Source of the DNA: Actinomyces weissii
GTDB lineage: Bacteria > Actinomycetota > Actinomycetes > Actinomycetales > Actinomycetaceae
Reading direction: 5' to 3'
DNA: 64,000 nt
Assembly (NCBI RefSeq): GCF_016598775.1
Contig: NZ_CP066802.1
Coordinates: 1,736,001 to 1,800,000 of the forward strand
Part shown: piece after piece, positions 24,343-40,169 of the stretch
Layout of the letters: each line of letters begins with the position of its first letter
Numbering within the stretch: position 1 is the first letter of the stretch
Position numbers and translations under genes: made by a program
The notes under the pieces: model-generated
Told to the model about the DNA's origin: nothing
What the model saw: the letters and a program-made list of their open reading frames with translations, nothing else
Database searches by the model: none

Positions 24343-24366
24343 GCAGCGCCGTCAGCCACGTAGATA

Positions 24367-24416
24367 GGGCTGTGCCCGCCGCAACCTCACTGGTGCGGCG
24401 GGCACAGCCCCTTTTC
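24367..24416. terminator. Two-way terminator between ettA and prfB
   Basis: A perfect 17-bp stem (24367-24383 with 24394-24410, GGGCTGTGCCCGCCGCA) with a 10-nt loop is followed by CTTTTC on the plus strand. Confidence 0.8.
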
Positions 24417-24458
24417 AGTCTGCGTGTCTGCCAGCCTGGCTGGCAGGCCGCAAGCGCC

Positions 24459-25580
24459 TCAGCCCTCCGCCTGCTCCTGCTGCTTGCGCCAGCGGATGCC
24501 CGCGTCGATGAAGCCGTCGATGTCGCCGTCGAAGACCGCCTCCGGGTTACCCACCTCGTGGCTGGTGCGCAGGTCCTTGACCATCTGGTAGGGGTTGAGC
24601 ACGTAGTTGCGCATCTGGTCCCCCCAGGAGGCCTTGACGTCCCCGGCCAGCTCCTTCTTCTTGGCGTCCTCCTCCTGCTTCTTGAGCAGCAGCAGGCGGG
24701 ACTGGAGCACGCGCATGGCGGCGGCCCGGTTCTGGATCTGGGACTTCTCGTCCTGCATGGATACCACCAGGCCGGTGGGCAGGTGGGTGATGCGCACGGC
24801 CGAGTCGGTGGTGTTCACGGACTGCCCGCCGGGCCCGGAGGAGCGGAAGACGTCGACGCGGATGTCGGTCTCGGGGATGTCGATGTGGTCGGTGGACTCG
24901 ATCAGCGGGATGACCTCCACGGCCGCGAAGGAGGTCTGGCGGCGGCCCTGGTTGTCGAAGGGGCTGATGCGCACCAGGCGGTGGGTGCCGCCCTCCACGG
25001 AGAGCGTGCCGTAGGCGTAGGGGGCGTGCACCTCAAAGGTCACGGACTTCAGCCCCGCCTCCTCGGCGTAGGAGGTGTCCAGCACCTTGACGGCGTAGTC
25101 GTGGCGCTCGGCCCAGCGCAGGTACATGCGCAGCAGCATCTCGGCGAAGTCGGCGGCGTCCACGCCCCCGGCCCCCGAGCGGATGGTGACGACGGCGTCG
25201 CGCTGGTCGTACTCGCCGCTGAGCAGCGTGCGGATCTCCAGCTCGGCCAGGTCCTTGGATATGGCCTGCAGGTCAGACTCGGCCTCCGCCAGGAGCTCGG
25301 CGGCGTCCTCGCCCTCCTCCTCGGCGGCCATCTCCACCATGGCCTCCAGGTCGTCGATGCGCCCGCCCAGGTCCTCCACACGCTTTAGGTCGGCCTGGGC
25401 GTGGGACAGGGCGGAGGTGACCACCTGGGCGGCGTCGGGGTCGTCCCACAGGTCAGGGGCGGCGGCCTTCTCGGAGAGCTCGGCGATGCGGGCACGCAGC
25501 GCCTGCGGGTCGGTCACCGCGGCGATGGAGGCGTAGGTGTGTCGGAGTCGTTCGATCTCTGCGGGAAAGTCAGTGGCCAC
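24459..25580 (-). CDS. prfB: Peptide chain release factor 2
   Basis: The 373-residue protein terminates translation at UGA and UAA. It has the RF2-specific tripeptide SPF (residues 206-208) and the catalytic GGQ (251-253) in [17 protein letters not shown]. There is no in-frame UGA or frameshift site near the start, so the autoregulatory frameshift of E. coli is absent, as expected in actinobacteria. I chose GTG 25580 because TATGCT lies exactly 6 nt upstream (25587-25592), as for a leaderless mRNA. The frame runs on to 26312 through the neighbouring gene, without meaning. Confidence 0.95.
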
Positions 25581-25586
25581 GGGCCG

Positions 25587-25592
25587 AGCATA
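25587..25592 (-). promoter_or_regulatory. -10 box for leaderless prfB
   Basis: Read on the minus strand this is TATGCT, 6 nt before the GTG start of prfB. No ribosome-binding site is present. Confidence 0.5.
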
Positions 25593-25717
25593 CCCGCCGG
25601 GGCGGTCCTGCCGCCGCGCCGGGGCCCTGGCACCGTGAAAGGAGGCTGGTGCTGTGAGGCACAGCCAGGGACCAGGTAAGCGACCTGGCAAAGGAGCTGG
25701 CACGGTGGGGCACAGCG

Positions 25718-25757
25718 CTGCCCGGGAGCGGCAGCCTGCTGGCACGCTCCCGGGCAG
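25718..25757 (-). terminator. Terminator at the end of the nucleoside cluster
   Basis: CTGCCCGGGAGCG (25718-25730) pairs perfectly with 25745-25757 across a 14-nt loop. It lies 17 nt after the stop of the phosphosugar mutase, the last gene of the cluster. Confidence 0.7.
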
Positions 25758-25774
25758 CCTGTAGGGGTCTCGGC

Positions 25775-27457
25775 TCAGATGCCGATGGCGGCGGCGAACT
25801 CGCTCTTGATGGTCTCCAGCCGCTGGCGGGCCTGCTCCCAGGGCACCAGAGCGCCCTCCGCCACCGGCAGCACCACCTCCAGGTAGCACTTGAGCTTGGG
25901 CTCCGTGCCGGAGGGCCGGGCGATGACCCGGTCGTCGGCCGCAGTGAGCACCATGACGGCGTTGGTGCCCGGCAGCCCGTCCCAGCCCTGTGACAGGTCG
26001 GTCACGGAGGTGACCGGGGAACCGGCCAGGGTGGCGGGCGGGTGCTGGCGCAGCCGCTCCATGCCCTGGGCGATCAGCTCCAGGTTCTCCACCCGGAAGG
26101 TCAGGGGCATGGTCTGGTACAGGCCGTAGGTGCGGGCCAGGCGCTCCAGCTCCTCCCCCACGGTGCGCCCCTGATCCTTGAGATCGGCGACCATGGAGGC
26201 CGCCACCACGGCGGTGGCGATGCCGTCCTTGTCCCGGGCGTGCTCCGGGTCGGGGCAGTAGCCGATGGCCTCCTCGTAGCCGAAGAACAGCCCCGGGGTG
26301 CGGGCGATCCACTTGAAGCCGGTCAGGGTGTGACGGTACTCCAGCCCGTGGCCCTGGGCGATGCGCTCCAGCAGGCGGCTGGAGACGATCGAGTTGGCCA
26401 GCACCGCCCCCTGGGGGGCGCGGGCCGCCAGGTACTCCCCCAGCAGGGAGCCGATCTCGTCCCCGGAGAGCTGGCGCCAGCCCTTGGGGGCGGCCGCGTC
26501 CGGCACCGCCAGGGCGCAGCGGTCCGCGTCCGGGTCCACGGCGATCAGCAGGTCGGCCCCCTGGGCGTCGGCCTGGGCGATAGCCAGGTCCAGGGCGCCC
26601 GGCTCCTCCGGGTTGGGGAAGGACACGGTCGGGAAGTCCGGGTCCGGCTCGGCCTGCTCAGCCACCGGCTGGACCTGGGGGAAGCCCGCCTCGTGCAGCA
26701 CCTGCTCGGCCAGGGCCGCCCCCACGCCGTGCATGGCGGTGAGGGTGATCTTCAGGTCCGCCTTGGCGCTGCTGCCGGAGGCCAGGCGGCTGGCCGCCTG
26801 TACGTAGTCTGCCCGCGGGTCCACCTGCTCGATGCGGGCCTCGTCCTGCGGCACCTGGTCGGCTGGCGGGGTGGCGGCGATCGCGGCGGCGATCTGGCCG
26901 TCGTAGGGCGGGACGATCTGGGCGCCCTGCCCGGCGTCGGTGACCACGGAGCCCCCCAGGTAGACCTTGTAGCCGTTGTCCTGGGCCGGGTTGTGGGAGG
27001 CGGTGACCATGATGCCTGCGTCGGCGTCCAGGTGGCGCACGGCGAAGGAGGTCAGCGGGGTCGGGTTCATGACCGGCAGGGCCAGGGCGTGGCAGCCGGC
27101 GGCGGAGACGACACGGGCGGCGGCGCGGGCGAAGTCCACGGAGCCGTGGCGGGCGTCGCAGCCGATCACCACCCGGGGCACGCGCGTGGTGCTGTCCTTG
27201 AGGAAGGCGCACAGCCCCGCCGTCGCCCGGATGACGACCGCCAGGTTCATGCGGGACTCACCGGGACCGATCTGGCCGCGCAGCCCGGCGGTGCCGAACT
27301 CCAGCGGCCCGGCCATGGCGGCCGCCACCTCCGCCAGGGCCTCGGCGTCCCCGGCGCGGGCGGCCTCCACCGCGGTCTGCAGGGCCACGGCGGTGGACTG
27401 GTCGGGGTCGTGCCCGGCCCACAGCTCGGCCCGGTCCAAAAGCTCCTGCTCACTCAT
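25775..27457 (-). CDS. Phosphohexomutase-family enzyme, probable phosphopentomutase
   Basis: The 560-residue alpha-D-phosphohexomutase has the phosphoserine loop [12 protein letters not shown] with Ser154, the metal loop DPDADRCAL, the sugar loop FGYEEAIGY and the phosphate-binding [12 protein letters not shown]. By sequence it could be a phosphoglucomutase or phosphomannomutase, and its length fits the PGM2-like branch. Its place next to deoC, deoD and deoA, with no deoB in the cluster, suggests that it turns (deoxy)ribose 1-phosphate into the 5-phosphate. This branch includes known phosphopentomutases, but here the role is inferred. ATG 27457 is 1 nt after the deoC stop codon. A terminator follows. 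Confidence 0.85.
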
Positions 27458-27458
27458 C

Positions 27459-28112
27459 TCAGTCCTCCAGCCCAGCCAGGATCGCCTTGGTGGCGGAGAC
27501 CCCCAGGCGGTTTGCCCCCGCCTCGATCATGGCGACGGCGGTGGCGGCGTCATGGATACCACCAGAGGCCTTGACCCCCATGTCCTCCCCCACGGTGGCG
27601 CGCATCAGGGCGACGGCGTGGGTGGAGGCGCCCCCGGCCGGGTGGAATCCGGTGGAGGTCTTCACGAAGTCCGCTCCGGCGGCCTGGGCGGCCTGGCAGG
27701 CCATGACGATCTCCGCGTCCGTCAGGGCCGCCGACTCGATGATGACCTTGAGCACCCGGGGGGCGGGTACGGCGTCGCGCACCGCCTGGATCTCAGCCTG
27801 CAGCTCGGCGGCGCGCCCCTCCTTGACCAGGGCGAGGTTGACGACCATGTCCACCTCGTCCACCCCGTCCTTGACGGCCTGGGCGGCCTCAAAGGCCTTG
27901 ACCTCCGCCTTTACGGCACCGGAGGGGAAGCCCACCACGCAGGCGGTGAGCAGGCCCTCCGGGTGCTCCAGGGGCAGCATGGACGGCGACACGCACACGG
28001 AGCAGGTGCCCAGGGCCGCCCCCTCCTGGACCAGCGCGGCCACGTCGGCGGAGGTCGCCTCGGGCTTTAACAGGGTGTGGTCGATCAGGCGCGCGACCTC
28101 AGTCTTCTTCAT
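27459..28112 (-). CDS. deoC: Deoxyribose-phosphate aldolase
   Basis: The 217-residue cytoplasmic class I aldolase splits 2-deoxyribose 5-phosphate into acetaldehyde and glyceraldehyde 3-phosphate, the last step of deoxynucleoside breakdown. Lys151 in [11 protein letters not shown] forms the Schiff base, and Lys122 (LKVIIES) and Asp88 (DEVDMVVN) are the other active-site residues. It starts [11 protein letters not shown] after a short N-terminus. It sits between deoD and the mutase in the cluster, 1 nt before the latter. Confidence 0.95.
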
Positions 28113-28141
28113 CTTCAGCTCCTAGGTAGTCAGTTCGCTTC

Positions 28142-28849
28142 TCACAGGGCTGCCAGGGGCAGGGCCAGCTCCATCATCTGGGTGAAGGCCGTCTGCCGCT
28201 CCTCGGCGGTGGTCTCGGCCCCGGTCACCAGGGAGTCGGAGACCGTGAAGATGCCCAGGGCCTCCACCCCGGCGTGGGCGGCGGTGGCGTACAGGCCGGC
28301 GGACTCCATCTCCACGGCCAGCACCCCCATCTTCTGCCAGCGCTCGTTGAAGGTGGGGTCGGCGTGGTAGAAGACGTCCGAGGACAGGATGTTGCCCACG
28401 TGGGTGGTCACGCCCTTGGCCTTGGCCTGCTCGCGCACGGCCTCGATCAGGCGGTAGGAGGCGATCGGCGCGTAGGTGCCGGGCAGGCCGTACTGGTCCG
28501 TGAAGCTGGAGTTGGAGCAGGCGGCCTGGCCGATGACCACGTCGTAGAGGTTGACGCCCTCCTGCATGCCTCCGCAGGTACCCACCCGGATCAGCTTCTT
28601 GCAGCCGAACACGTGGATCAGCTCCCAGGCGTACAGGGAGATGGAGGGAATGCCCATGCCGGAGCCCATGACGGACACGGGGGTGCCCTGGTAGGTGCCG
28701 GTGAATCCCAGCATGTTGCGCACGGAGTTGAACTGCTGGACGTCCTCCAGGTAGGTCTCCGCGATGAACTTGGCGCGCAGCGGGTCCCCGGGCAGGAGGA
28801 TCGTCTCGGCGATGGGGGCCTGCGGGTTGATATGCGGTGTTGACTTCAT
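28142..28849 (-). CDS. deoD: Purine nucleoside phosphorylase, DeoD type
   Basis: The roughly 235-residue enzyme cleaves purine (deoxy)nucleosides with phosphate into base and (deoxy)ribose 1-phosphate. Family motifs are LLPGDPLRAKFIAE, MGSGMGIPSISLYAWEL, RVGTCGGMQ, VEMESAGLYATA and TVSDSLVTGAE. Two ATGs and a GTG stand in a row (28855, 28852, 28849); I chose the last because GGAG then lies 5 nt upstream. A 149-bp leader separates it from the regulator gene and may hold an internal promoter. Confidence 0.95.
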   Translation of the reverse strand: MKSTPHINPQAPIAETILLPGDPLRAKFIAETYLEDVQQFNSVRNMLGFTGTYQGTPVSVMGSGMGIPSISLYAWELIHVFGCKKLIRVGTCGGMQEGVNLYDVVIGQAACSNSSFTDQYGLPGTYAPIASYRLIEAVREQAKAKGVTTHVGNILSSDVFYHADPTFNERWQKMGVLAVEMESAGLYATAAHAGVEALGIFTVSDSLVTGAETTAEERQTAFTQMMELALPLAAL

Positions 28850-28998
28850 CATCACTCCGTTTCTGGTTGGTGGGGCGCTGCCTAGGCACAGGCCGGACTC
28901 GGCTGCCGGGCACCACCCCGATGGTATCTCTTTGTCAGTTCAGTGTTTTACATTTGTTCAGCCCTTTGGGTGCCCTCGTGCCGCAGGGGGTCCAGGCG
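28850..28998 (-). promoter_or_regulatory. Possible internal promoter/operator before deoD
   Basis: An AT-rich segment at 28925-28965 reads on the minus strand with two CTGAAC words 16 bp apart and a TACCAT box further on. B. subtilis DeoR, a relative of the regulator encoded just upstream, binds TGAAC-containing repeats, so this could be its operator. Spacing to a -35 box is not convincing. Confidence 0.35.
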
Positions 28999-29955
28999 CT
29001 ACGACGCAGCCTCCGGGCGGCCCTCATCCAACAGCGTCAGGGCCAGGCGCTGGTCCACCACCAGGTGGCTGGACAGGCCCATCTCCAGCGCGGTGGACAC
29101 GGCCCGGGCCTTGCCCTGCCCTCCGGCCACCAGCACCCGTACCGGCCGGGAGGCCAGGTCCTCCAGGGTGATGCCCACTGTACGCTCGTCCAGGTCCTTG
29201 ACCGCCACCTGCCCCGCGCTGCTGAAGAAGCGGGAGCAGGCGTCCCCAACGGCCTCCTGCAGCACGGCCTGGCGGTCCTCCTGGTCCAGCTGACGATGGC
29301 TGAGCAGCAGGCTGTCCGGCGTGACCGCACCCACCGTGAACACCACGGCGTCAGCCTGGGCCCCGGCAGCCAGGACGGCTGCTATGTGCGGGTCCTCCTG
29401 GACGATCTGCCAGGTGGTCACGTCCTGGAAGACCACCGGCAGCGGCAGGTAGAGAGGCACCGCGCTGAAGGCGTCGCAGAAGGCCCGCATGACCTCGAAG
29501 TCGTCGGTGGCCTGCTCGGAGTAGGAGCTGCCGCCCTTGAGCTGCACTATCCGCACGTCCCGCCGCGCAGTGTGCCGCAGCCGGGAGGCGATGGCGCTCA
29601 TGGTCCGCCCCCAGGACACCCCCACGCTCATGCCGTCCCGCACCAGCCCGGTGACCAGCTCGGCCCCTACGCGCCCCAGCTCCTCCAGGAGCTCCGCGTC
29701 GGAGGAGACCGGGGCGTGCACCACTCGCGCCTCCGCCAGGCCGTAGCGCTCCTGGAGGCGGTGCCCCAGCTCTGAGGAGGTCTCACGCGGGTCGTTTATG
29801 ACCACGGTGACGTAACCGGCCTCCTTGCCCCGCTGAAGCAGCTTGGCCACGGTGGGCCGGGACAGGCCCATGGCGACAGCCACCTCCGCCTGGCTCAGAC
29901 CGCGCTCAAAGTAGAGCCGGACGGCGGTGATGGCCTGCTCGTCACGCTTGTCCAT
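28999..29955 (-). CDS. SorC/DeoR-family sugar-binding regulator
   Basis: The 318-residue protein has an N-terminal helix-turn-helix (residues about 17-42, LSQAEVAVAMGLSRPTVAKLLQ) and a C-terminal SorC-type sugar-phosphate-binding domain (SVGVSWGRTM, VQLKGGSSYSE, GAQADAVVFTVGAV). B. subtilis DeoR belongs to this family and is induced by deoxyribose 5-phosphate. Its place inside the deo cluster, between deoA and deoD, makes control of this cluster the likely job. ATG 29955 begins the conserved MDKRDEQAITAVRLYF. Confidence 0.88.
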   Translation of the reverse strand: MDKRDEQAITAVRLYFERGLSQAEVAVAMGLSRPTVAKLLQRGKEAGYVTVVINDPRETSSELGHRLQERYGLAEARVVHAPVSSDAELLEELGRVGAELVTGLVRDGMSVGVSWGRTMSAIASRLRHTARRDVRIVQLKGGSSYSEQATDDFEVMRAFCDAFSAVPLYLPLPVVFQDVTTWQIVQEDPHIAAVLAAGAQADAVVFTVGAVTPDSLLLSHRQLDQEDRQAVLQEAVGDACSRFFSSAGQVAVKDLDERTVGITLEDLASRPVRVLVAGGQGKARAVSTALEMGLSSHLVVDQRLALTLLDEGRPEAAS

Positions 29956-30037
29956 GGGTCCCCCTACTCAGGTCTGCGTCCCGGGCCTCCGGGCGGCACC
30001 GGTGCCGCACTCAGCCGTGGGCCGTCCTGGCTCCAGG

Positions 30038-31321
30038 TCACTCCACGTGGTCCAGCAGCACGCTGCCGCGGGACGGGGCCTTAGTGCCGATCCGGATGCC
30101 GCCCTCCAGGGCCTCCAGGGCCCGGGGGACGCGCCACTCGTCGTCGGTGTGCAAGGTGAGCACCGGCTGGCCCTGACGCAGGACCTGGCCGGGCTTGGCG
30201 TGGATCTCGATCCCTGCCGCCGCCTGGACCGGGTCCTCCTTGACCGCCCGGCCTGCACCCAGCCGCCAGGAGGCCACGCCTACGCAGAGCGCGTCCAGGC
30301 TCTCCAGGACCCCGTCCGCGGTGGCCAGCACCTGGTGGCTGTGCCGGGAGGTGGGCAGGGCCGCGTCCGGGTCACCGCCCTGCTCACGGATCATGGCCCG
30401 CCAGCGGTCCATGGCGCGCCCGTCCTTGAGGGCCGCCTCCACGTCGGCGTCAGGCTGGCCCGCCATCTCCAGCATCTTGCGGGCCAGGGCGAGGGTCAGC
30501 TCGACGACGTCCTGCGGGCCGCCGCCAGCCAGCACCTCCACGGACTCCTCCACCTCCAGGGCGTTGCCGACCTTCAGGCCCAGCGGCGTGGACATGTCGG
30601 TGAGGAAGGCGAAGGTGCGCACCCCGGCGTCCTTGCCCAGGTCCACCATGGCCTGGGCCAGCTCGCGGGCTGAGCTGAGGTCCTTCATGAAGGCCCCGGA
30701 GCCCACCTTGACGTCCAGCACCAGGGAACCGGTGCCCTCGGCGATCTTCTTGGACATGATGGAGGAGGCGATCAGCGGGATACAGTCCACGGTGGAGGTG
30801 ATGTCCCGCAGGGCGTAGAGCTTCTTGTCCGCCGGGGCCAGGCCCGCGCCCGCGGCGCAGACCACGGCGCCACAGCCCTGGCCCAGCTGGTGGAGGATCT
30901 CCTCGTTGGACAGGCTGGCCCGCCATCCGGGGATGGCCTCCAGCTTGTCCAGGGTGCCGCCGGTGTGCCCCAGGCCCCGCCCGGAGAGCTGGGGCACGGC
31001 CACCCCGAAGCAGGCCACCAGGGGGGCCAGCGGCAGGGTGATCTTGTCGCCCACGCCACCGGTGGAGTGCTTGTCGGCGGTGGGGCGGCCGATGCCACTG
31101 AAGTCCATGCGCTCACCGGAGTCGATCATCGCCTGGGTCCACTGGGCGATCTCCTCCCGCTCCATGCCCCGCAGGAAGATGGCCATGGCCAGGGCCGCCA
31201 TCTGCTCGTCCTTGACGGCTCCCCGGGTGTAGGCGTCCACGGTCCAGGCGATCTGCTCCGGGCTGAGCCGACCGCCGTCCCGCTTGGTCCGGATGACGTC
31301 GACGACGTCGAACTGCTCCAT
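30038..31321 (-). CDS. deoA: Thymidine/pyrimidine-nucleoside phosphorylase
   Basis: The 427-residue enzyme phosphorolyses thymidine, and probably uridine and deoxyuridine, to base and (deoxy)ribose 1-phosphate. The signature SGRGLGHTGGTLDKLEAIPG, the phosphate loop DKHSTGGVGDKITLPL and the KKLYALRDITSTV segment are all present. The length is usual. It lies 52 nt after cdd, which makes uridine from cytidine, so the two act in series. Confidence 0.93.
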   Translation of the reverse strand: MEQFDVVDVIRTKRDGGRLSPEQIAWTVDAYTRGAVKDEQMAALAMAIFLRGMEREEIAQWTQAMIDSGERMDFSGIGRPTADKHSTGGVGDKITLPLAPLVACFGVAVPQLSGRGLGHTGGTLDKLEAIPGWRASLSNEEILHQLGQGCGAVVCAAGAGLAPADKKLYALRDITSTVDCIPLIASSIMSKKIAEGTGSLVLDVKVGSGAFMKDLSSARELAQAMVDLGKDAGVRTFAFLTDMSTPLGLKVGNALEVEESVEVLAGGGPQDVVELTLALARKMLEMAGQPDADVEAALKDGRAMDRWRAMIREQGGDPDAALPTSRHSHQVLATADGVLESLDALCVGVASWRLGAGRAVKEDPVQAAAGIEIHAKPGQVLRQGQPVLTLHTDDEWRVPRALEALEGGIRIGTKAPSRGSVLLDHVE

Positions 31322-31373
31322 CTTCTCCCTCTTCCTTCTGGGGCCTAGGCCCGTTACTCGTGTGGCTGGCGTG

Positions 31374-31790
31374 TCAGTGCTGACGGAAGGTACTGGTGGG
31401 GACCAACGTCAGGTCCGTGGGCTCAAAGCCCTCAGGCAGCACCTGGCTCATGGGCATGACGGCCGAAGGCATGCGCACCAGGCACCCGGGGCCGCCGTGC
31501 TCAAGGATCAGCTGGCGGCAGCGCCCGCAGGGGACCACCGGCTCCTCGTTGCCGTTAACGCAGGCCACGGCCACCAGCCGCCCCCCGCCGGAGAGGGCCA
31601 GGGCCCCGACCATGGCGCACTCGGCGCACAGGCCCAGTCCGTAGGAGGCGTTCTCCACGTTGCAGCCCACCACCACCTGCCCGTCGGTGGTGAGCCCGGC
31701 CGCTCCCACCGGGTAGCCGCTGTAGGGGCAGTAGGCGTGACGCATCGCCTCCACGGCGGCCGCGGTAAGCGCCTCCCAGTCGATCTGCAT
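31374..31790 (-). CDS. cdd: Cytidine deaminase
   Basis: The 138-residue zinc enzyme converts cytidine and deoxycytidine to uridine and deoxyuridine. The zinc ligands are Cys55, Cys88 and Cys91 and the catalytic base is Glu57 (CAECA and PCGRC), with the substrate motif GCNVENASY. It belongs to the short homotetrameric class. It sits between the permease genes and deoA in the nucleoside cluster. Confidence 0.95.
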   Translation of the reverse strand: MQIDWEALTAAAVEAMRHAYCPYSGYPVGAAGLTTDGQVVVGCNVENASYGLGLCAECAMVGALALSGGGRLVAVACVNGNEEPVVPCGRCRQLILEHGGPGCLVRMPSAVMPMSQVLPEGFEPTDLTLVPTSTFRQH

Positions 31791-31809
31791 ACCTGTCAGC
31801 TCCTTGTGC

Positions 31810-33087
31810 TCACTTCACGTAGGGGACGTTCTCTGCCGCCGGGGGCCGCGACTTGCCCACGAACCCGGCCACCGCCACGATGGTGACGACGTAGGGGATC
31901 ATGGCCACCAGGTCGGAAGGGATGCTCGGGGCCACGTTGGGCAGCATCCGGGCCACCGCCTGGGCGAAGCCGAACATGAGCGCCGCCCCCATGGCCCCCA
32001 GCGGGTGCCACTTACCCAGGATCATGGCCGCCAGGGCGATGTAGCCGTTGCCGGCGGAGATGTTGTCGGTGAAGGACAGCACCGAGCCGAGGGTGAAGAA
32101 GGCACCACCCAGCCCGGCGAAGGCCGAGCCCAGGATCGTGTTCAGGGCCCGCGTGCGGTTCACGTTGATGCCCACGGTGTCCGCGGCCCGGGGGTGCTCG
32201 CCGCAGGCCCGCAGGCGCAGGCCCCAGCGGGAGCGGAACAGGTAGACGGTCAGGAAGGCGACCGCCAGGTACATCAGGTAGACCAGGATCGTCTGGTTGA
32301 AGAGCATCGGGCCGACCACCGGGATCTCTGAGAGCCCCGGGATCTTGATGGGTGCCAGGGAGAACTGGTTGGTGTTGAGCCTCTCAGGGACCTTCTTCAT
32401 GACCGTCTGGTAGAAGAAGGTGGTCAGGCCCAGGGCCAGCACGTTGAGCACCACGCCGACGATGATCTGGTCCACGCCGTAGCGCACCGCGAACAGGGCC
32501 AGCAGGCATCCCAGCAGCGCGCCCGCCAGGGGCGCCGCCACCAGCCCCATGTAGGGGGTGCGGAAGTAGGAGGCGGCCATGACACCCGCGAAGGCCCCCA
32601 CCAGGAGGTCACCTTCAATGGCGATGTTGACCACGCCCACGCGCTCCGAGACCACGCCGGACAGGGACCCGAAGATCAGGGGCGTGGAGATCGCGATCGT
32701 AGAGACCAGCACCGAGGTCAGGGTCAGGGCCGCAGACGAGCCGGTGGCCGCGAAGACCAGGAAGCCCAGGACCGTGGAGAGGACCGCCAAGGACATGACG
32801 GCGACCTCCACCAGGCGGGGGACCCTGATACGCAGGATGGTGCTGGCCCAGCCCCAGAGGCACAGGACCGTCATAACGATCAGCAGGAACACCAGGATCC
32901 TGGGACCGGAGGTCACGATGTCCGGGATGGCCAGGCTCTGGGACTTGTCACGCAGACGTATCGTCACGTCCCCCTTGGCAGAGTAGGCCATGAAGCCGAG
33001 CAGGACGGTGGCCAGTAGGTAGATGACCGGGATCTTCCAGGCGCGCCTGGTCTGCACCTCGGTGCTCGCAGTGGTGGCGGTAGTCAT
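31810..33087 (-). CDS. Nucleoside ABC transporter permease (NupQ-like)
   Basis: The 425-residue protein has about ten membrane segments and the permease signature of branched-chain/nucleoside importers (SLSGVVSERVGVVNIAIEGD). A short cytoplasmic N-terminus with [17 protein letters not shown] precedes the first helix. It pairs with the permease gene just upstream, which it overlaps by 4 nt. The C-terminal MLPNVAPSIPSDLVAMIPYVVTI is typical of the NupQ/YufQ group. Confidence 0.9.
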   Translation of the reverse strand: MTTATTASTEVQTRRAWKIPVIYLLATVLLGFMAYSAKGDVTIRLRDKSQSLAIPDIVTSGPRILVFLLIVMTVLCLWGWASTILRIRVPRLVEVAVMSLAVLSTVLGFLVFAATGSSAALTLTSVLVSTIAISTPLIFGSLSGVVSERVGVVNIAIEGDLLVGAFAGVMAASYFRTPYMGLVAAPLAGALLGCLLALFAVRYGVDQIIVGVVLNVLALGLTTFFYQTVMKKVPERLNTNQFSLAPIKIPGLSEIPVVGPMLFNQTILVYLMYLAVAFLTVYLFRSRWGLRLRACGEHPRAADTVGINVNRTRALNTILGSAFAGLGGAFFTLGSVLSFTDNISAGNGYIALAAMILGKWHPLGAMGAALMFGFAQAVARMLPNVAPSIPSDLVAMIPYVVTIVAVAGFVGKSRPPAAENVPYVK

Positions 33088-34319
33088 CGGGCCTCTCCCT
33101 TCGGCTCTAAGGAGGCATCGCTGCCCTTGTCGTCAGCAGGCACCTGCCTGGCGGTCCCCGGCTGGACGCCGGTGCTCCCAGCCCCGGCTCCCAGGGCGGC
33201 CAGCTCCTGGCCCAGGCTCAGGCGCCTAGGGGTGGGCAGGCGGAACAGCCACCGCACCAGTGCCGGGGCGGCGATCAGCAGCACGATCACCGACTGCAGG
33301 ATCAGGATCATGTCCACCGGCACCCCCTTGGCCTGCATGGTGTAGCCACCGGCCTTGAAGGCCCCGAAGAGCAGCCCGGAGGCCAGGGTGCCCAGGGGCT
33401 TGTTACGGCCCAGCAGGGCCACGGTGATCGCGTCGAAGCCGATGGACCCGGCCACGCCCCGCGAGACGTAGCCGATGGTGCCCAGAGCCTCGTTGGCGCC
33501 GGCCAGCCCCAGGAAGGCACCGGAGATCGCCATGGTCAAGGTGGTGATCCCACCCACCGGGATGCCGGCGGTGCGGGCGGCGTCCGGGTTGGCTCCTACC
33601 GCCCGCACCTGCAGGCCGATGGTGGAGCGGTCCAGCAGCCACCAGAAGACGACGACGGCCAGCGCGGCCACGAGGATCCCCGCGTGCAGCTTGAAGGGGG
33701 CGGGCAGCAGCTTGATGAAGGCGGCGCTCTCCGCCACGTTAGGCGTCTGGGGCTGCTTGGAGCCAGGCACCTGCCAGGACTCCTGGGACAGTGCGTAGCC
33801 CAGAGCCAGGAAGGCGATGGAGTTGAGCATGATCGTCACGATCACCTCGTTGGCGCCGGTACGGGCCTTGAGCAGCCCGGCCAGCCCGGCGTACAGGGCC
33901 CCGGCGAGCATGGCCATGAGCAAGGCGACCAGGGTGTGCACCACCGGTGGCAGGCTCAGGGAGAATCCCACCCAGACGGCGGCCATGGCCCCCAGGATCA
34001 CCTGCCCCTGCCCGCCGATGTTGAACAGTCCCGCCCGGAAGCCGAAGCCCAGGCCCAGGCCGCCGATGATCAGGGGGATCGCGTAGAACAGCGAGTCCGT
34101 CAAGGGCTTGACCTGTCGCTGCGTGGTGGCGGCGGTCGGGTCGAAGACCGCCCCGCGGAACATGGCGAAGTAGGCCTCCCCCACGGAGGCGCCCGCCATC
34201 ACGATCAGGATCGCCCCAAGTGCGAAGGAGATGAGCACCGCCAGCACCGAGACGAAGGGCTTGGAGCTGAGCAGGTGCCGCAGGACCACCAGGGCCTTGG
34301 CTGCTCTCATCTGGTTCAT
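33084..34319 (-). CDS. Nucleoside ABC transporter permease (NupP-like)
   Basis: The 411-residue membrane protein is the partner permease ([43 protein letters not shown]-like segments). After the last helix there is a hydrophilic tail of about 50 residues rich in Gly, Ala and charge. It overlaps the ATPase gene by 4 nt upstream and the second permease by 4 nt downstream, so translation is probably coupled along the operon. An early stop in the ATPase could therefore also lower its expression. Confidence 0.9.
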
Positions 34320-35890
34320 AGCGCTGTCTCCTGTCCGGGACGCTGCACGCTGGTGGCGTCCGCCGTCGTGGCCTGGGAGGCCAGGGCCTCTTCCTGCGGC
34401 ACCCCGGCCATCATCAGGCCCAGGGCCTCGCGGGAGGTGTCTGCCGGGACCAGGCCGACTATCCGCCCGCGGTACATGACCGCTATCCGGTCCGCCAGGG
34501 CGATCACCTCGTCCAGCTCGGAGGAGATGAGCAGCACCGCCGCGCCCTGGTCACGCACCTCGACGATGCGCTTGTGGATGAACTCGATAGAGCCCACGTC
34601 CACGCCCCGGGTGGGCTGGTTGGCTACCAGCAGCTTGAGGTCCTTGGAGATCTCGCGGGCTACCACGACCTTCTGCTGGTTGCCGCCGGACAGGGAGGAG
34701 ATCGGGTCCTCGATGCTGGTCAGGCGGATGTCGTACTCGTCCCTCTTCTCCTGGGCGTTGCGCGCGATCGCGCCGAGCCTCAGCAGCGGCCCCCGGGAGA
34801 AGGCCGGGCTCTTGAACTGGTCCAGCACCAGGTTCTCGGCGATCGAGAAGCCGGCGATGATGCCGTCAGTGGTGCGGTCCTCCGGGATGAAGCCGATCCC
34901 GGCGGCCAGGGAGCGGGCCGGGTTGGTGCGGGTGATGTCCTGCCCGGCCAGGGTGATGGTGCCTGACTCCGGGGCGTGCAGGCCCAGCACCACCTCCGCC
35001 AGCTCGGTCTGGCCGTTGCCCTGGACGCCGGCGACGGCGACGATCTCACCCCGCCCGACGCTGAGGCTGACGTGGTCCAGCAGCGTGGTGCCGGAGGGGG
35101 ACAGCAGGGAGACGTCCTGGAAGCTCAGGCCGCCGCCGCTGGGGCTGGCGGGGGTCTTCTCCACCCGCATCATGATGGAGCGGCCCACCATCTTGTTGGC
35201 CAGCTCGGCCTCGCTGTCCTGCGGCGAGGCGGTGCCGACGACGGCGCCGCGACGGATCACCGTGATCTCGTCGGCGACGGCGCGCACCTCCCGGAGCTTG
35301 TGGGTGATGAAGACGATGGAGGTGCCCGCCTGGGCCAGCTGGCGCATGATCTCCATGAGCTCATCGGTCTCCTGCGGGGTCAGGACCGCGGTGGGCTAGT
35401 CGAGGATCAGCACCTTGGCGTCGCGGGACAGGGCCTTGACGATCTCCACCCGCTGCTGGGCGCCTACGGGCAGGTCCTCGATCAGGGCGTCGGGGTCCAG
35501 GTCGAAGCCGAAGCGGGCCGAGACCTCCTGGACGGTCCGGCGGGCCTGGGCCACGTCGATCAGCGCGGCCTTGCCCAGGGGCTCGTAGCCCAGGGCGATG
35601 GACTCGGCGACGGTGAACACCGGGATGAGCATGAAGTGCTGGTGGACCATGCCCACCCCGGCGGCGACGGCGTCGCCCGGCCCCCTAAAGACGACCGGCT
35701 GGCCGTCGATGAGGATCTGGCCCTCATCCGGCTGGTGCATGCCGTAGAGGACATTCATCAACGTGGACTTGCCCGCCCCGTTCTCCCCCAGCAGGGCGTG
35801 GATATGCCCTTCCCTGATGGTGAGGTTGATGTTGTCGTTTGCCACGAGGGGACCAAATCTCTTGGTGATCCCTCTGAGTTCCAGTTCCAC
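34316..35890 (-). pseudogene. Nucleoside ABC transporter ATPase interrupted by an amber codon
   Basis: The reading frame from ATG 35890 to 34316 would encode about 524 residues with two ABC domains, as in NupO/YufO. It is cut by TAG at 35398-35396. Domain 1 has Walker A LGENGAGKSTL, the signature LPVGAQQRVEI and Walker B AKVLILD, then the stop, then PTAVLTPQE in the same frame. The lost residue is the catalytic Walker B glutamate (expected GAG; one G-to-T change). Domain 2 has the usual degenerate Walker [20 protein letters not shown] and [11 protein letters not shown], and no other damage. The second part could restart at ATG 35356, but would lack the first ATP site. Possible explanations are a sequencing error, a recent inactivating mutation, or readthrough. 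Confidence 0.85.
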
Positions 35891-35947
35891 GGCCGCCGGC
35901 CCTCCTGCTCACCTAGTGCTGCTTACCGCGTGACGCGGACGAAGGAG

Positions 35948-35987
35948 CCTGAGGGCGTGGCGGAGCCTCCTCCGCCACGCCCTCAGG
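35948..35987 (-). terminator. 18-bp hairpin between the binding protein and the ATPase gene
   Basis: CCTGAGGGCGTGGCGGAG (35948-35965) pairs perfectly with 35970-35987 over a 4-nt loop and lies 6 nt after the binding-protein stop. It is probably a partial terminator or a 3' stabiliser, giving more binding protein than transporter. Confidence 0.65.
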
Positions 35988-35993
35988 TCACGC

Positions 35994-37079
35994 TCACTTG
36001 GGGGTGTTCTGCGACTCGACCTTGAGCTCGCCGCTCTTGATCTGCTCGGTGAGCTTGTCTACCTCGGCCTTGAGCCCCTGGGGGACCTTGGAGTCAAAGT
36101 CGTGGTAAGGGGCGATGGACACGCCGCCGTTGGCCAGGGAGCCGACATAGGGCTCAGAGGTGAACTTGCCCTCCACCGAGTCCTTAATGGCCTGCTCCAC
36201 GGAGGCCCCGATCTCCTTCTTCACGGAGGTCAGGACGATGTCCTTGTAGTCGGGGTTGGCCTCGTACCAGTCGGAGTCCACACCGATGATGTAGGTGTCA
36301 CCGTCCGCCTTGGCGGCGGCGGCGGCTCCCAGGCCCACCGGGCCAGCCACGGGCATGATGATGTCCGCGCCCTGGTCGATGAACTGCTGGGCCTGCTGCT
36401 TGCCCAGGGCCTGGTCGTCGAAGCTGTTGGTGAAGGCCCCGTTCTGGGTGGCCTTGTCCCAGCCGAGGAGCTGGACGCTGGCGCCGTGGGCCTTGTTGTA
36501 GGCGTCCACGCCGTCGGCGAAGCCGTCCATGAAGATGTTGACGGAGGGCAGCGGGATACCTCCGAAGGTCGCGACCTTGCCGCTCTGGGACATGCCAGCA
36601 GCGACGTAGCCGGCCAGGAAGGCGGCCTCAGCGGTGTTGAACAGCAGCGGACGGCCGTTCTCCAGGGTGACCGGCTGGTTGTCCGGGCCAGAGAAGCCGG
36701 AGTCCACCAGGGCGTAGTGCAGGTCCTTGTTGATGTCGGCGTTGGCGTGCAGCGCCTGCTCCAGCTTGAAGCCGACACCGATGATCAGGTTGCAGCCGTC
36801 AGAGACCATGGCCTCCACGTTGGGCTGGAAGTCGGCGTCCGAGGAGGACTCAGCGGTGTTGGTCTTGATGCCGAGGGTGGTCTCCGCGGCCTTGAGCCCC
36901 TGGTAGGCGGACTCGTTGAAGGACTTGTCGTCCCAGCCGCCGGCGTCGGAGATGGCGCAGGCCTTGAAGCTGCTCGCTTCCTTCCTGCCGCCGTCAGTGG
37001 AGGTGCCTCCACCACCGCACCCGGCGAGGGCGAGCGCGGAGATGCTCGCGACCGCAATAATCCTGGAGAGGGTCTTCAT
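35994..37079 (-). CDS. BmpA/PnrA-family nucleoside-binding lipoprotein
   Basis: The 361-residue protein has a lipoprotein signal (MKTLSRIIAVASISALALAG, Cys21 in LAGC). A periplasmic-binding-protein fold of the Bmp family follows, with AISDAGGWDDKSFNESAYQGL, GVGFKLEQAL, TAEAAFLAGYVAAGMS and VAGPVGLGAAAAAK. Relatives such as PnrA bind purine nucleosides. As first gene of the cluster it delivers nucleosides to the ABC transporter encoded next. ATG 37079 follows CCGGAGGA. Confidence 0.93.
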   Translation of the reverse strand: MKTLSRIIAVASISALALAGCGGGGTSTDGGRKEASSFKACAISDAGGWDDKSFNESAYQGLKAAETTLGIKTNTAESSSDADFQPNVEAMVSDGCNLIIGVGFKLEQALHANADINKDLHYALVDSGFSGPDNQPVTLENGRPLLFNTAEAAFLAGYVAAGMSQSGKVATFGGIPLPSVNIFMDGFADGVDAYNKAHGASVQLLGWDKATQNGAFTNSFDDQALGKQQAQQFIDQGADIIMPVAGPVGLGAAAAAKADGDTYIIGVDSDWYEANPDYKDIVLTSVKKEIGASVEQAIKDSVEGKFTSEPYVGSLANGGVSIAPYHDFDSKVPQGLKAEVDKLTEQIKSGELKVESQNTPK

Positions 37080-37099
37080 ATCGTGTTCCTCCGGTTGGT

Positions 37100-37115
37100 T
37101 GTTCGCCCTTGAACA
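37100..37115. promoter_or_regulatory. Candidate operator upstream of the nucleoside cluster
   Basis: TGTTC-GCCCTT-GAACA is a perfect 5-bp inverted repeat with a 6-nt spacer, 20 nt before the BmpA-like gene. It shares the GAACA word with the repeats upstream of deoD and could be bound by the SorC/DeoR regulator. Confidence 0.4.
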
Positions 37116-37177
37116 GGTGGGGGACGCAGCTGGGGTGCTGCCCCGTCAAAGCGATGGACACCCGTCGGGATTAACGA

Positions 37178-37206
37178 ATGTCAATCTGTACTTTGACGCT
37201 TGACAA
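37178..37206 (-). promoter_or_regulatory. Promoter of the nucleoside cluster
   Basis: On the minus strand TTGTCA (37206-37201) and TGACAT (37183-37178) are 17 bp apart in a locally AT-rich stretch. The distance to the first gene is about 100 nt. Confidence 0.45.
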
Positions 37207-37298
37207 ATAGTGTCGTCCGTCCTCCCCGGCCTGTCAAGCCAGCCGGAGACTCCGAGTATGTTCCCCCCACCTGCGAGGCGCCGTGGCCGGGGCGTCTG

Positions 37299-38210
37299 TC
37301 ACCCCAGCTCCAGTGACTCTACCTGGGCCAGCAGCACCTCCAGAACCGCGCGCACCGCTGCGGAGGGGTCCGAGCGGGTCTCCCGGTGGCGCACCACAAG
37401 CTGGCGCGTGCCCAGCCCCGGCAGCCGGGACACCACCACCCCCTCGGGTACGAAGCCCGAGCGCACCGCCAGCTCCGGCAGCAGGGCGTGCCCCAGCCCC
37501 TGGCTGACCATGGCCAGCACCACGTCGTAGTCGTAGGCGACGTGCCGGGTCTCCAGCGGGACCGCGAGCTGCTGGGCCAGCCGGGTCAGGGCGAAGGCAC
37601 CCGCCGTGTGGGGGTCCAGGTCGATCCAGGTCACCCCCGCCAGGTCCGCCAGGCTGCTGGGGGCCGGGCAGCCCGGGGGCACCACCACCAGCCAGGACTC
37701 GTCCAGCAGAGGCAGGTCCGCGGTGGCGCGGGGCGCGGGCGGCAGGGTGTGCTCGTCGCGCTCCAGGAGCACCAGGTCCAGCTCCCCGTGGCGCAGCCGC
37801 TTGAGGGCCGCCCGCTCCTCCACCTCCTCGACCACCAACTCAACCGCCGGGTAGGCGGCCTCCAGGGAGCTTAGGAGCGGCAGCAGCAGGGCCCGGATGG
37901 CGGTGGAGAAGGAGCCGATGCGCACGGTCCCGGCCGGGGCGGCGGCGTCAACGGCGGCCAGCTCCCGGCGGGCGGTCGCCAGCTCCACCTCGATGCGCTC
38001 CGCGGCGTCCGCCAGCACCCGCCCGGCCGGGGTCAGCGTGGCCCCCGCCGGTGTGCGGTTGAGCACGCGCAGACCGGTCTCCTTCTCCAGGAGCTTGATC
38101 TGCTGGCTCACGGCGGAGGGGGTCAGGCGCAGGGAATCCGCTGCCGCCACAACGCCTCCGGCCCGCTGCACGGCCAGCAGCACGTTGATGCGGTGGGGCG
38201 AGATGTTCAC
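37299..38210 (-). CDS. LysR-family regulator (ArgP/LysG-like)
   Basis: The 303-residue protein has a LysR winged helix (residues about 4-62, HRINVLLAVQRAGGVVAAAD, LRLTPSAVSQQIKLLEKETG) and a C-terminal effector domain (IGSFSTAIRALLLPLL, LDLVLLERDEH, VSQGLGHALLPELAV). The target is unknown; the gene diverges from a small membrane protein gene, which may be under its control. GTG 38210 is chosen because TATGCT ends 6 nt upstream (38217-38222) with no ribosome-binding site. An ATG at 38246 is in frame but lies upstream of that box. Confidence 0.87.
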   Translation of the reverse strand: MNISPHRINVLLAVQRAGGVVAAADSLRLTPSAVSQQIKLLEKETGLRVLNRTPAGATLTPAGRVLADAAERIEVELATARRELAAVDAAAPAGTVRIGSFSTAIRALLLPLLSSLEAAYPAVELVVEEVEERAALKRLRHGELDLVLLERDEHTLPPAPRATADLPLLDESWLVVVPPGCPAPSSLADLAGVTWIDLDPHTAGAFALTRLAQQLAVPLETRHVAYDYDVVLAMVSQGLGHALLPELAVRSGFVPEGVVVSRLPGLGTRQLVVRHRETRSDPSAAVRAVLEVLLAQVESLELG

Positions 38211-38216
38211 CCCCCG

Positions 38217-38222
38217 AGCATA
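38217..38222 (-). promoter_or_regulatory. -10 box for the leaderless LysR gene
   Basis: TATGCT on the minus strand lies 6 nt before GTG 38210. This is the same sequence and spacing as before prfB. Confidence 0.45.
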
Positions 38223-38297
38223 GTTCAGTCTCACTACAGGCCACATGAAGGTCTATGTAATTGATCTTCAGGTTGGCGGTGCCCCAGGATGCCGCCT

Positions 38298-38666
38298 GTG
38301 ACTGACGTGGTTGACCTGCTCATCGGTGTCGGCGGCTGGATCGGGGCCGCCGAGTTCCTGCTCGCCTACTTCCTGGTGTCCAAGGGCCGGCTCGCCGGGG
38401 ACTCGCTGCGCTACCAGGCCCTGAACCTGTCCGCCTCCGTGCTGCTGCTGCTCAACTGCGCCCGCACCGGGGCCTGGCCCAGCGCGGTGGCCAACATCTT
38501 CTACGTGCTGGTAGGGCTGAACATCCTCATGACCGTCAAGCGCGCCTACATCGCCCAGCTGGCCCAGAACCAGGTGCAGGCGGCCGCCCAGTGGCGGGTC
38601 AGCGCCTGGTGGCGCCGGTCCCTCAGCGCTGCGCCACTCGGGCGGAGGCCTGGGCCCGCAGCGTGA
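38298..38666 (+). CDS. Small membrane protein, CBU_0592-like
   Basis: The 122-residue protein has three predicted membrane segments (IGVGGWIGAAEFLLAYFLV, YQALNLSASVLLLLN, VANIFYVLVGLNILM), the pattern of the CBU_0592-type integral membrane family of unknown function. A basic tail follows. GTG 38298 has CAGGA 8 nt upstream; ATG 38289 is in frame and adds three residues but has its AGG too close. Its last 44 nt overlap the 3' end of the TadG-like gene on the other strand. Confidence 0.65.
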   Translation: MTDVVDLLIGVGGWIGAAEFLLAYFLVSKGRLAGDSLRYQALNLSASVLLLLNCARTGAWPSAVANIFYVLVGLNILMTVKRAYIAQLAQNQVQAAAQWRVSAWWRRSLSAAPLGRRPGPAA

Positions 38667-39111
38667 AGCCCTCCGCGCCGATCACGCCCCAGGGCAGGAA
38701 GGGCGGCTGGGAACGCCCCCGTAGCTCCACCCGCACGCTGGCCCCGTCAGGGCTGGTGGCCCTGACCACCTCCACACCGGTCAGCCCGCCCTCTGTCCGC
38801 ACCTGCTGCATGTAGGCGTGGACTGCCTGGCTGACCCCCGCGTCGTCCAGCGGCCGGTCCGCGTTGGCCCCCGTGCGCAGGTACTGGTCCTGGTCCACGT
38901 TGGCGACGGCGCTGGCCGCCGCCAGGTCCGCCAGGCCCGTAAGCCGCTTGAGGTCCAGGTAGACGGAGCTGACGGAGGCCACCAGCAGCACCAGGGCCAG
39001 GACGACCGCCAGCAGGCCCGTTCCCAGCAGCAGCACCTGCCCCTCCTCCGCCCGCAGACGCGCCCGCAGCCGCGCCCACAGGCGGCTAGCCGCCTCCCTG
39101 CCCCGGCTCAC
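38623..39111 (-). CDS. TadG-like pilus assembly protein
   Basis: The 162-residue protein has a basic N-terminus, one hydrophobic segment (EEGQVLLLGTGLLAVVLALV, about residues 21-43) and an exported domain with LTGLADLAAASAVANVDQDQY, typical of the TadE/TadG-like pseudopilin family (Rv3654c position). It is the last gene of the Tad cluster. GTG 39111 overlaps the preceding stop (GTGA). Its 3' end overlaps a convergent gene. Confidence 0.78.
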   Translation of the reverse strand: MSRGREAASRLWARLRARLRAEEGQVLLLGTGLLAVVLALVLLVASVSSVYLDLKRLTGLADLAAASAVANVDQDQYLRTGANADRPLDDAGVSQAVHAYMQQVRTEGGLTGVEVVRATSPDGASVRVELRGRSQPPFLPWGVIGAEGFTLRAQASARVAQR

Positions 39112-39557
39112 GGCTGCTCCGGTCCCGCTGGCAGGGACACCTGCTGCACGGCGTCCACCACGAGGACGTCCTGCCCCAGCCCGACCGCGCTGAGCACCGG
39201 CAGATCCACCCCGACCGCCACCCGTACCACCGCCTGTCCACCGGCGCAGCCCGGGCGCTCGCACTCCACCGTGAGCGCCCGGGCGGCCTCGTCGGCGTCG
39301 ACGCGCTGGTCCGTGAGCGCCAGGACCACCGAGCTGCGGGCCAGGTCCAGGCCCTTCTCCCCCGGGTAGCTGATAAGCATCCGTGCCGCCGCCTGCGCCC
39401 CCGCCGTCGTGGCGAAGCTGGCCGCCTGCACCCCGGCCAGGGCCACCACCAAGTAGGCCACCGGCAGCAGCACCGCCACCACCCAGCCGACGAACTCCAC
39501 CTGGGCGTTGCCCGCCTGGTCCCGCAGCCACCGGTCCCACCGGCGCGCGCGGCTCAT
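39108..39557 (-). CDS. TadE-family pilus protein 2
   Basis: The 149-residue protein has a TadE-type N-terminus (GNAQVEFVGWVVAVLLPVAY, with the Glu five residues into the hydrophobic segment typical of pseudopilins). Its C-terminal domain has two cysteines (VECERPGCAGG) that could form a disulfide. The start overlaps the stop of the previous gene and its end overlaps the next start, so three small genes are translationally coupled. Confidence 0.78.
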   Translation of the reverse strand: MSRARRWDRWLRDQAGNAQVEFVGWVVAVLLPVAYLVVALAGVQAASFATTAGAQAAARMLISYPGEKGLDLARSSVVLALTDQRVDADEAARALTVECERPGCAGGQAVVRVAVGVDLPVLSAVGLGQDVLVVDAVQQVSLPAGPEQP

Positions 39558-39985
39558 GGCTGGCGCCCCGCACCGTCGGGGTCGCTGGTCAGCGCTGACT
39601 CGTCGACGGCGTGGGCCCTCACCCGCAGGGTCCCGGCGGGCCCCAGCAGCCCCAGCACCGGCAGCGGCGCGCTGGCCGTGACCTCCACGACCGCCACCCC
39701 GCCCCGGCTCACCCGCCGGACCTCCACCTGCTGCAGGTAGTCGTCTGTCAGGGCCTGGGCGACCAGCTCCGCGACCCGGGCGCGCCCCTCAGCCTCGGAG
39801 CCTCCCAGCAGGGCGGCCCGCCTAGCCCCCTCACCGGCTGCGTCCACCAGGACGTTACGGACGTGCAGTCCCAGGGCCAGCTGGAGCAGTCCCAGCCCCA
39901 GGGCCACCACCAGCACGGAGACCAGCGCGAAGTCCACCGGCGCGGACCCGCGCTCGCCACCCGACGACCGCCGCTCAGATCGCAC
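39554..39985 (-). CDS. TadE-family pilus protein 1
   Basis: The 143-residue protein has the pseudopilin-like segment GSAPVDFALVSVLVVALGLG followed by HVRNVLVDAAGEGARRAALLGG, the TadE pattern found in Rv3655c-like genes. Such proteins may be minor components or assembly factors of a Tad/Flp fibre. Its GTG start lies inside the end of the DUF4244-like gene (11-bp overlap). Confidence 0.8.
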   Translation of the reverse strand: MRSERRSSGGERGSAPVDFALVSVLVVALGLGLLQLALGLHVRNVLVDAAGEGARRAALLGGSEAEGRARVAELVAQALTDDYLQQVEVRRVSRGGVAVVEVTASAPLPVLGLLGPAGTLRVRAHAVDESALTSDPDGAGRQP

Positions 39986-40169
39986 CGGTGACCTTGGACA
40001 TCGCCTGGGTGAACACGTCGGTCAGGGCGGGGCCCGCCACCGCCCACAGGGCCACCACCAGGCCAGCGGTCATCATCGTCACCAGCACCCAGCCGGGCAC
40101 GTCCCCACGCTCCGCCCCCAGCCGGTGGCCCAGCATGCGCAGCCCTTTCCTGAGGTGTGTCAGTACCAT
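39975..40169 (-). CDS. Flp-pilin-like small protein (DUF4244)
   Basis: The 64-residue protein carries a basic leader (RLGAERGDVPGW) followed by one hydrophobic segment (VLVTMMTAGLVVALWAVAG) and a short tail, TDVFTQAMSKVTGAI. This matches the DUF4244 proteins in the Rv3656c position and probably is the main pilin. ATG 40169 has AGGAGGAG 5 nt upstream, the strongest ribosome-binding site of the cluster. Confidence 0.82.
   Translation of the reverse strand: MVLTHLRKGLRMLGHRLGAERGDVPGWVLVTMMTAGLVVALWAVAGPALTDVFTQAMSKVTGAI

What the first reader, a model, noticed from the sequence alone, without database searches (positions are those of the whole stretch)
35396..35398. Amber codon exactly at the catalytic Walker B glutamate of the nucleoside ABC ATPase
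The minus strand reads codons for VLILD, then TAG, then PTAVLTPQE in one frame. The expected codon is GAG, so a single G-to-T change explains it. The rest of the 524-codon gene is intact, as are all overlapping operon genes. Either uptake by this operon is dead in this strain, or the ATPase is made as two parts or by readthrough, or the base is a sequencing error. Loss of exactly this residue would, if read through with Gln, give an ATP-trapping variant.
Basis: partly seen in the sequence, partly recalled or inferred. Interest (0 to 1): 0.75.

Follow-up and report, generated by a model that had tools for sequence, protein, structure and literature searches.

The report
Private stop codon in nucleoside transporter ATPase
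One bacterial genome carries a stop codon inside the gene for the energy-supplying part of a nucleoside uptake pump, so the pump is probably dead there (or the letter is a sequencing error); this is an ordinary kind of gene damage.

Summary
The minus-strand ATPase gene (34316-35890) has an in-frame TAG at 35396-35398 (codon 165), where all 109 relatives aligned have glutamate. The nearest congener, 95% identical, has no stop. The rest of the gene is intact and still looks constrained, so the change is recent or an error. The residue is the only catalytic glutamate of the fused ATPase: in all 109 relatives the second domain has glutamine in place of both the Walker A lysine and the Walker B glutamate, and never the Walker B aspartate, as published for B. 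subtilis NupO. Neither the truncated piece nor a piece restarted at Met179 contains it. RF1 is intact and none of 54 tRNA matches has a CTA anticodon, so readthrough is unsupported. This is the genome's only BMP-family match. Most likely: a recent private loss of nucleoside uptake; main rival: a base-call error. Raw reads would decide. Ordinary, low interest. In passing: this operon's ATPase is closer to that of Trueperella pyogenes than to those of 27 congeners in the tree.

The parts
35396..35398 (-). In-frame TAG at codon 165, at the Walker B glutamate column
   Evidence: Glu in 109 of 109 aligned relatives
34316..35890 (-). Interrupted gene of the fused (two-domain) ABC ATPase, GTG start, 524 positions plus stop
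   Evidence: PF00005 in both pieces
35396..35890 (-). N-terminal open frame, 164 aa: Walker A, Q-loop, signature and Walker B up to Asp164
34316..35356 (-). Downstream open frame from ATG (Met179), 346 aa: H-loop of NBD1 and the degenerate NBD2; AGGAG 12 nt upstream of the ATG
35994..37079 (-). BMP-type substrate-binding lipoprotein, intact
   Evidence: PF02608; the only match of this family in the genome
33084..34319 (-). Permease 1, intact; ATG overlaps the ATPase stop (ATGA); AGGAG 8 nt upstream
   Evidence: PF02653
31810..33087 (-). Permease 2, intact; ATG overlaps the permease 1 stop (ATGA)
   Evidence: PF02653
31374..31790 (-). Cytidine deaminase
   Evidence: NF004064 and TIGR01354 over cut-off
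30038..31321 (-). Thymidine/pyrimidine-nucleoside phosphorylase
   Evidence: NF004490 and TIGR02644 over cut-off
28999..29955 (-). DeoR-like (sugar-binding domain) regulator
   Evidence: PF04198 over cut-off; NF053881 320 bits, below its cut-off of 420
28142..28855 (-). DeoD-type purine-nucleoside phosphorylase
   Evidence: TIGR00107 over cut-off
27459..28112 (-). Deoxyribose-phosphate aldolase DeoC
   Evidence: TIGR00126 over cut-off

Best explanation
A recent nonsense mutation, private to this genome among those examined, truncates the fused ATPase of a BMP-type nucleoside ABC importer. Translation stops after Asp164. The 164-residue product lacks the glutamate that activates water for ATP hydrolysis, the D-loop and H-loop of NBD1, and all of NBD2. 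NBD2 is naturally degenerate, so no catalytic site remains and the importer has no power stroke. Permease translation may also fall, because the permease start overlaps the ATPase stop. The salvage genes stay open. Shown: the stop, its uniqueness among the aligned relatives, the degenerate second site, intact RF1, no CTA-anticodon tRNA found. Inferred: that the base is real, that uptake is lost, and that the substrate is a nucleoside (from the neighbouring genes).
For: Glu in 109 of 109 aligned relatives, stop only in the own copy; no stop in the nearest congener; NBD2 lacks the Walker A Lys and the Walker B Asp and Glu in 109 of 109 (published for NupO, PMC11466899, passages); RF1 intact; none of 54 tRNA matches with CTA anticodon; stops inside are rare elsewhere, 1 of 108 domain matches; the operon is dispensable in the genus, 9 of 49 genomes lacking the ortholog.
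Against: No second lesion and no sign of relaxed selection on the own branch: 7 amino-acid changes plus the stop against 17 synonymous, and 6 against 19 on the neighbour branch. This confines any real loss to about the last fifth of the branch, and it is also what an intact gene with a base error would show. No reads and no second isolate of the species could be examined.
Confidence: 0.68

Rival explanations
1. The base is a sequencing, assembly or culture-passage error, and the gene is intact in the organism.
For: One base only, no second lesion, constraint on the gene unchanged; no reads available.
Against: The genome is one contig, 98.9% complete, 0.3% contaminated; only this 1 of 108 domain matches has a stop inside. 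Of 57 ORFs compared with the neighbour 6 were flagged: 4 read as upstream extensions, 1 is the antisense ORF over this same site, 1 outside the window is unresolved. These make widespread error unlikely but cannot exclude one error.
Confidence: 0.27
2. The TAG is read through at a useful rate, giving some full-length ATPase, perhaps with a non-Glu residue at the catalytic place (an ATP-trapping form).
For: The frame beyond the stop is open and constrained. Stop-codon readthrough is measurable in E. coli, in the order TGA > TAG > TAA (PMC11126739, passages).
Against: No CTA anticodon among 54 tRNA matches, RF1 intact, no relative has a stop here. Any residue but Glu would stop turnover, NBD2 being degenerate.
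Confidence: 0.03
3. The ATPase is made as two chains, the second restarting at Met179, and they assemble into a working enzyme.
For: An ATG lies 39 bases after the stop in the same frame, with AGGAG 12 nt before it. Restart could keep ribosomes on the message for the overlapping permease genes.
Against: Residues 165-178, with the catalytic glutamate and the D-loop, would be in neither chain, and NBD2 cannot replace them. The AGGAG lies in codons conserved for the protein (residues 173-174). None of 109 aligned relatives is split here.
Confidence: 0.02

Closest known systems
Bacillus subtilis NupNOPQ guanosine importer with the fused ATPase NupO (PMC11466899, passages); Lactococcus BmpA-NupABC (recalled)
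   Same: Two ATPase domains in one chain, the second degenerate at the Walker A Lys and the Walker B Asp and Glu; with a BMP-type binding protein and two permeases
   Different: Here a stop codon removes the single catalytic glutamate and everything after it
Recent nonsense pseudogene (strain-level loss of a transporter)
   Same: One premature stop, intact relatives, no compensating decoding found
   Different: Nothing notable except the residue that is hit; not yet confirmed by reads

Membership tests
NupO/NupA-type fused nucleoside ABC ATPase | Two ABC_tran domains in one chain | tested here: met
   PF00005 on both sides of the stop in one frame; as a translated chain it is interrupted
NupO/NupA-type fused nucleoside ABC ATPase | Second domain degenerate at the Walker A Lys and the Walker B Asp and Glu | tested here: met
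   own copy Q294, N424, Q425; 109 of 109 relatives lack all three residues
NupO/NupA-type fused nucleoside ABC ATPase | Operon with a BMP binding protein and two BPD_transp_2 permeases | tested here: met
   PF02608, PF02653, PF02653
NupO/NupA-type fused nucleoside ABC ATPase | Catalytic glutamate in NBD1 | tested here: not met
   TAG in its place
NupO/NupA-type fused nucleoside ABC ATPase | Transports nucleosides | not testable with these tools
   inferred from cdd, nucleoside phosphorylases and deoC beside it; the best NCBIfam models are 'putative B6' transporter models, all below cut-off
Nonsense pseudogene | Premature stop with intact orthologs in near relatives | tested here: met
Nonsense pseudogene | Relaxed selection after the lesion | tested here: inconclusive
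   no relaxation seen; the stop is at most about a fifth of the branch old, if real
Recoded or programmed readthrough gene | Stop conserved in relatives | tested here: not met
   0 of 109 aligned relatives
Recoded or programmed readthrough gene | Suppressor tRNA or missing RF1 | tested here: not met
Split two-chain ATPase | The two parts together hold all catalytic motifs | tested here: not met
   residues 165-178 in neither part if restart is at the first in-frame ATG, GTG or TTG

The most novel reading that the evidence does not exclude
The stop is fixed in the species and partly read through, giving a low level of ATPase with a non-glutamate residue at its only catalytic place. This locks the importer as a nucleoside-binding, non-transporting complex (a sensor or scavenger) while the downstream salvage genes stay expressed.
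Probability: 0.02. Interest if true: 0.6.

Novelty: new member of a known kind. Interest (0 to 1): 0.14.

Why it matters
If real, it predicts that this isolate cannot take up nucleosides through its only BMP-type importer, in a genus where 9 of 49 genomes lack the ortholog. It is also a natural knock-out of the sole consensus ATPase site of a fused, asymmetric ABC ATPase. Beyond that it is routine gene damage, and a caution for metabolic models built from this one genome.

Tried and rejected
Suppressor tRNA: none among 54 matches. Loss of RF1: intact. Split protein: the parts lack residues 165-178. Back-up by another BMP system: none in the genome. CNT nucleoside transporters: no PF07662 match; other nucleoside transporter families were not tested. 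Back-up by the other fused ATPase (37% identical, C1:692005-693456): it sits beside its own permease, a sugar-type binding protein and dehydrogenase-like genes, and its NBD2 keeps DEP (read by eye from the ORF translations, no family search), so it looks like a sugar or inositol system; sharing of ATPases was not tested. Rfam at gathering score over 30000-40000: nothing. Solved structures by sequence: in the 60 of 124 rows shown, general ABC ATPases and none named as a BMP or nucleoside importer. Papers: searches were seen as listings with abstract starts; passages of two papers were read. The 10 listed of 230 held nothing on this case; I make no claim that such a case is not in print. No structure was predicted, as it would not separate the rivals.

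Limits of the counts. The 80 named loci are the best 80 of 560 relatives of a capped list, and may overlap in species with the 29 unnamed congener loci. Five of the 80 show a stop, at alignment column 504 or later, in the tail. One search compared 57 ORFs of G044 with G000; compared genes lie only at about -2 to 49 kb and 100 to 143 kb in window coordinates, and elsewhere in the 224 kb nothing passed. Six were flagged: four read as 5' extensions, one the antisense ORF over this same site, and one (115 aa, in two pieces about 1.7 kb apart, outside the window) unresolved. The antisense ORF displaced the ATPase gene itself in that census. The reverse comparison (59 ORFs of G000 in G044) flagged 5, which I read as 5' extensions or antisense ORFs, not proven one by one. 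Cruder versions were (window only; three flagged places looked at; 62 ORFs, 8 flagged; 59 in reverse, 8 flagged), dropped because antisense ORFs crowd them.

Full report
What is there. The minus strand from GTG 35890 to the stop at 34316-34318 is one frame with a single interruption, TAG at 35396-35398, codon 165. Both halves match ABC_tran (PF00005). The gene lies between a BMP-type binding lipoprotein (PF02608) and two BPD_transp_2 permeases (PF02653), followed by cytidine deaminase and thymidine/pyrimidine-nucleoside phosphorylase, a DeoR-like regulator, DeoD and DeoC. This is a nucleoside uptake and salvage cluster; the substrate is inferred from the neighbours. The best NCBIfam models for the transporter proteins are those of a 'putative B6' ABC family, all scoring well below their cut-offs.

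Is it private? In the genus, 40 of 49 genomes (own included) have the ortholog at 64% identity or more and 9 do not; the nearest, G044, is 95% identical with no stop. A BMP binding protein is matched in 41 of 49. Seven congeners show one TGA; their alignments, which cover residues 1 to 506 or 509, hold no stop, so that TGA lies in the tail. In 110 loci aligned at the column (own, 29 congeners, 80 named relatives), 109 have Glu and only the own copy has a stop. The 80 are the best 80 of 560 in a capped list. Ten further congener orthologs were not fetched; one search lists no stop in them.

Is the gene decaying? With G002 as outgroup, the own branch has 7 amino-acid changes plus the stop against 17 synonymous codon changes, and the G044 branch 6 against 19. 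Pairwise dN/dS to G044 is 0.13, beside 0.18-0.20 for the permeases and 0.14 for the binding protein. If constraint ended when the stop arose, that was within about the last fifth of the branch (upper bounds 0.16-0.19 for a constrained dN/dS of 0.10-0.135; 0.20 when error in the synonymous count is allowed for). So the stop is recent, or it is an error.

Is the assembly poor? Only 1 of 108 matches to three large families has a stop inside, and it is this one. In the parts of 224 kb of G000 that align to the G044 stretches, 57 ORFs were compared and 6 flagged: four read as upstream extensions, one is the antisense ORF over this site, and one outside the window is unresolved. In the reverse direction 5 of 59 were flagged, read as extensions or antisense ORFs. 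The genome is one contig, 98.9% complete and 0.3% contaminated. Widespread error is therefore unlikely, but a single error remains possible.

What would it do? In all 109 relatives NBD2 has Gln at the Walker A lysine and Gln at the Walker B glutamate; the aspartate position is Ser (54), Ala (43), Asn (10) or Cys (2). The first signature is non-canonical (LPVG) and the second canonical (LSGGN). The one consensus site thus pairs NBD1's Walker A and B with NBD2's signature (pairing recalled from ABC structures). A 2024 survey says the same of B. subtilis NupO: one degenerate site, no lysine in the second Walker A, and no Asp or Glu in the second Walker B (PMC11466899, passages). So the TAG removes the only catalytic glutamate and all that follows. 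A restart at Met179 would still lack residues 165-178. The permease 1 start overlaps the ATPase stop (ATGA), but permease 1 has an AGGAG of its own 8 nt upstream, so a fall in permease translation may be partial.

Could it be decoded? RF1 is intact and above cut-off. All 54 tRNA matches were read by ARAGORN and none has anticodon CTA; one odd ARAGORN call in the window, with a four-base anticodon catg, is not among the 54. Readthrough of TAG at some rate is measured in E. coli (PMC11126739, passages), but nothing points to a regulated event here.

Is hitting this residue remarkable? Hardly. In the neighbour's intact copy 103 single-base changes would make a stop; 36 are the same kind of change at Glu codons, and 14 of 103 fall in NBD motifs. 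Any stop in the first half would kill the protein alike.

Context. The ATPase tree puts own, G044 and G002 with Trueperella pyogenes and Actinomyces sp. S6-Spd3 (support 100/100), inside an Arcanobacterium/Trueperella group (100/96) and apart from the 27 other congeners in the tree (54 rows chosen from 110, midpoint root, long-branch warnings for some other rows). This suggests that the operon was replaced horizontally before the stop arose. No species tree was built, so an odd placing of these three genomes in the genus is not excluded.

Verdict. Observation confirmed. Most likely a recent private nonsense mutation that kills the importer (0.68), with a base error second (0.27). A new instance of a known kind; interest low.

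Noticed in passing
window 34316-35890; L081, L082, L083 against L001, L002: The ATPase of own, G044 and G002 is closer to that of Trueperella pyogenes and Actinomyces sp. S6-Spd3 (about 80% identity) than to 27 other congeners (about 65-69%), and groups with them in a tree: likely horizontal replacement of the operon, or odd genus limits.
   Followed up: partly
window 22660-37079: Genes in this block have dS of about 0.1-0.5 to G044, against a median of 0.55 over 57 ORFs and up to 1.4 elsewhere; similar low-dS gene runs lie at about 105-110 kb and 137-141 kb in window coordinates. Gene exchange between species or codon bias.
   Followed up: partly
G000 stretch of 224 kb against G044 stretch of 270 kb: GC 70.9% against 65.7% in largely corresponding stretches of two congeners: an unusually large difference.
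   Followed up: no
window 46464-46554 (+): ARAGORN calls a tRNA-like element with a four-base anticodon (catg); it is not among the 54 RF00005 matches, so probably false.
   Followed up: partly
window 35396-35399: CTAG is its own reverse complement, so the change also puts a TAG into the long antisense ORF on the plus strand (33684-35399), which is longer in G044; that ORF is probably not a gene.
   Followed up: partly
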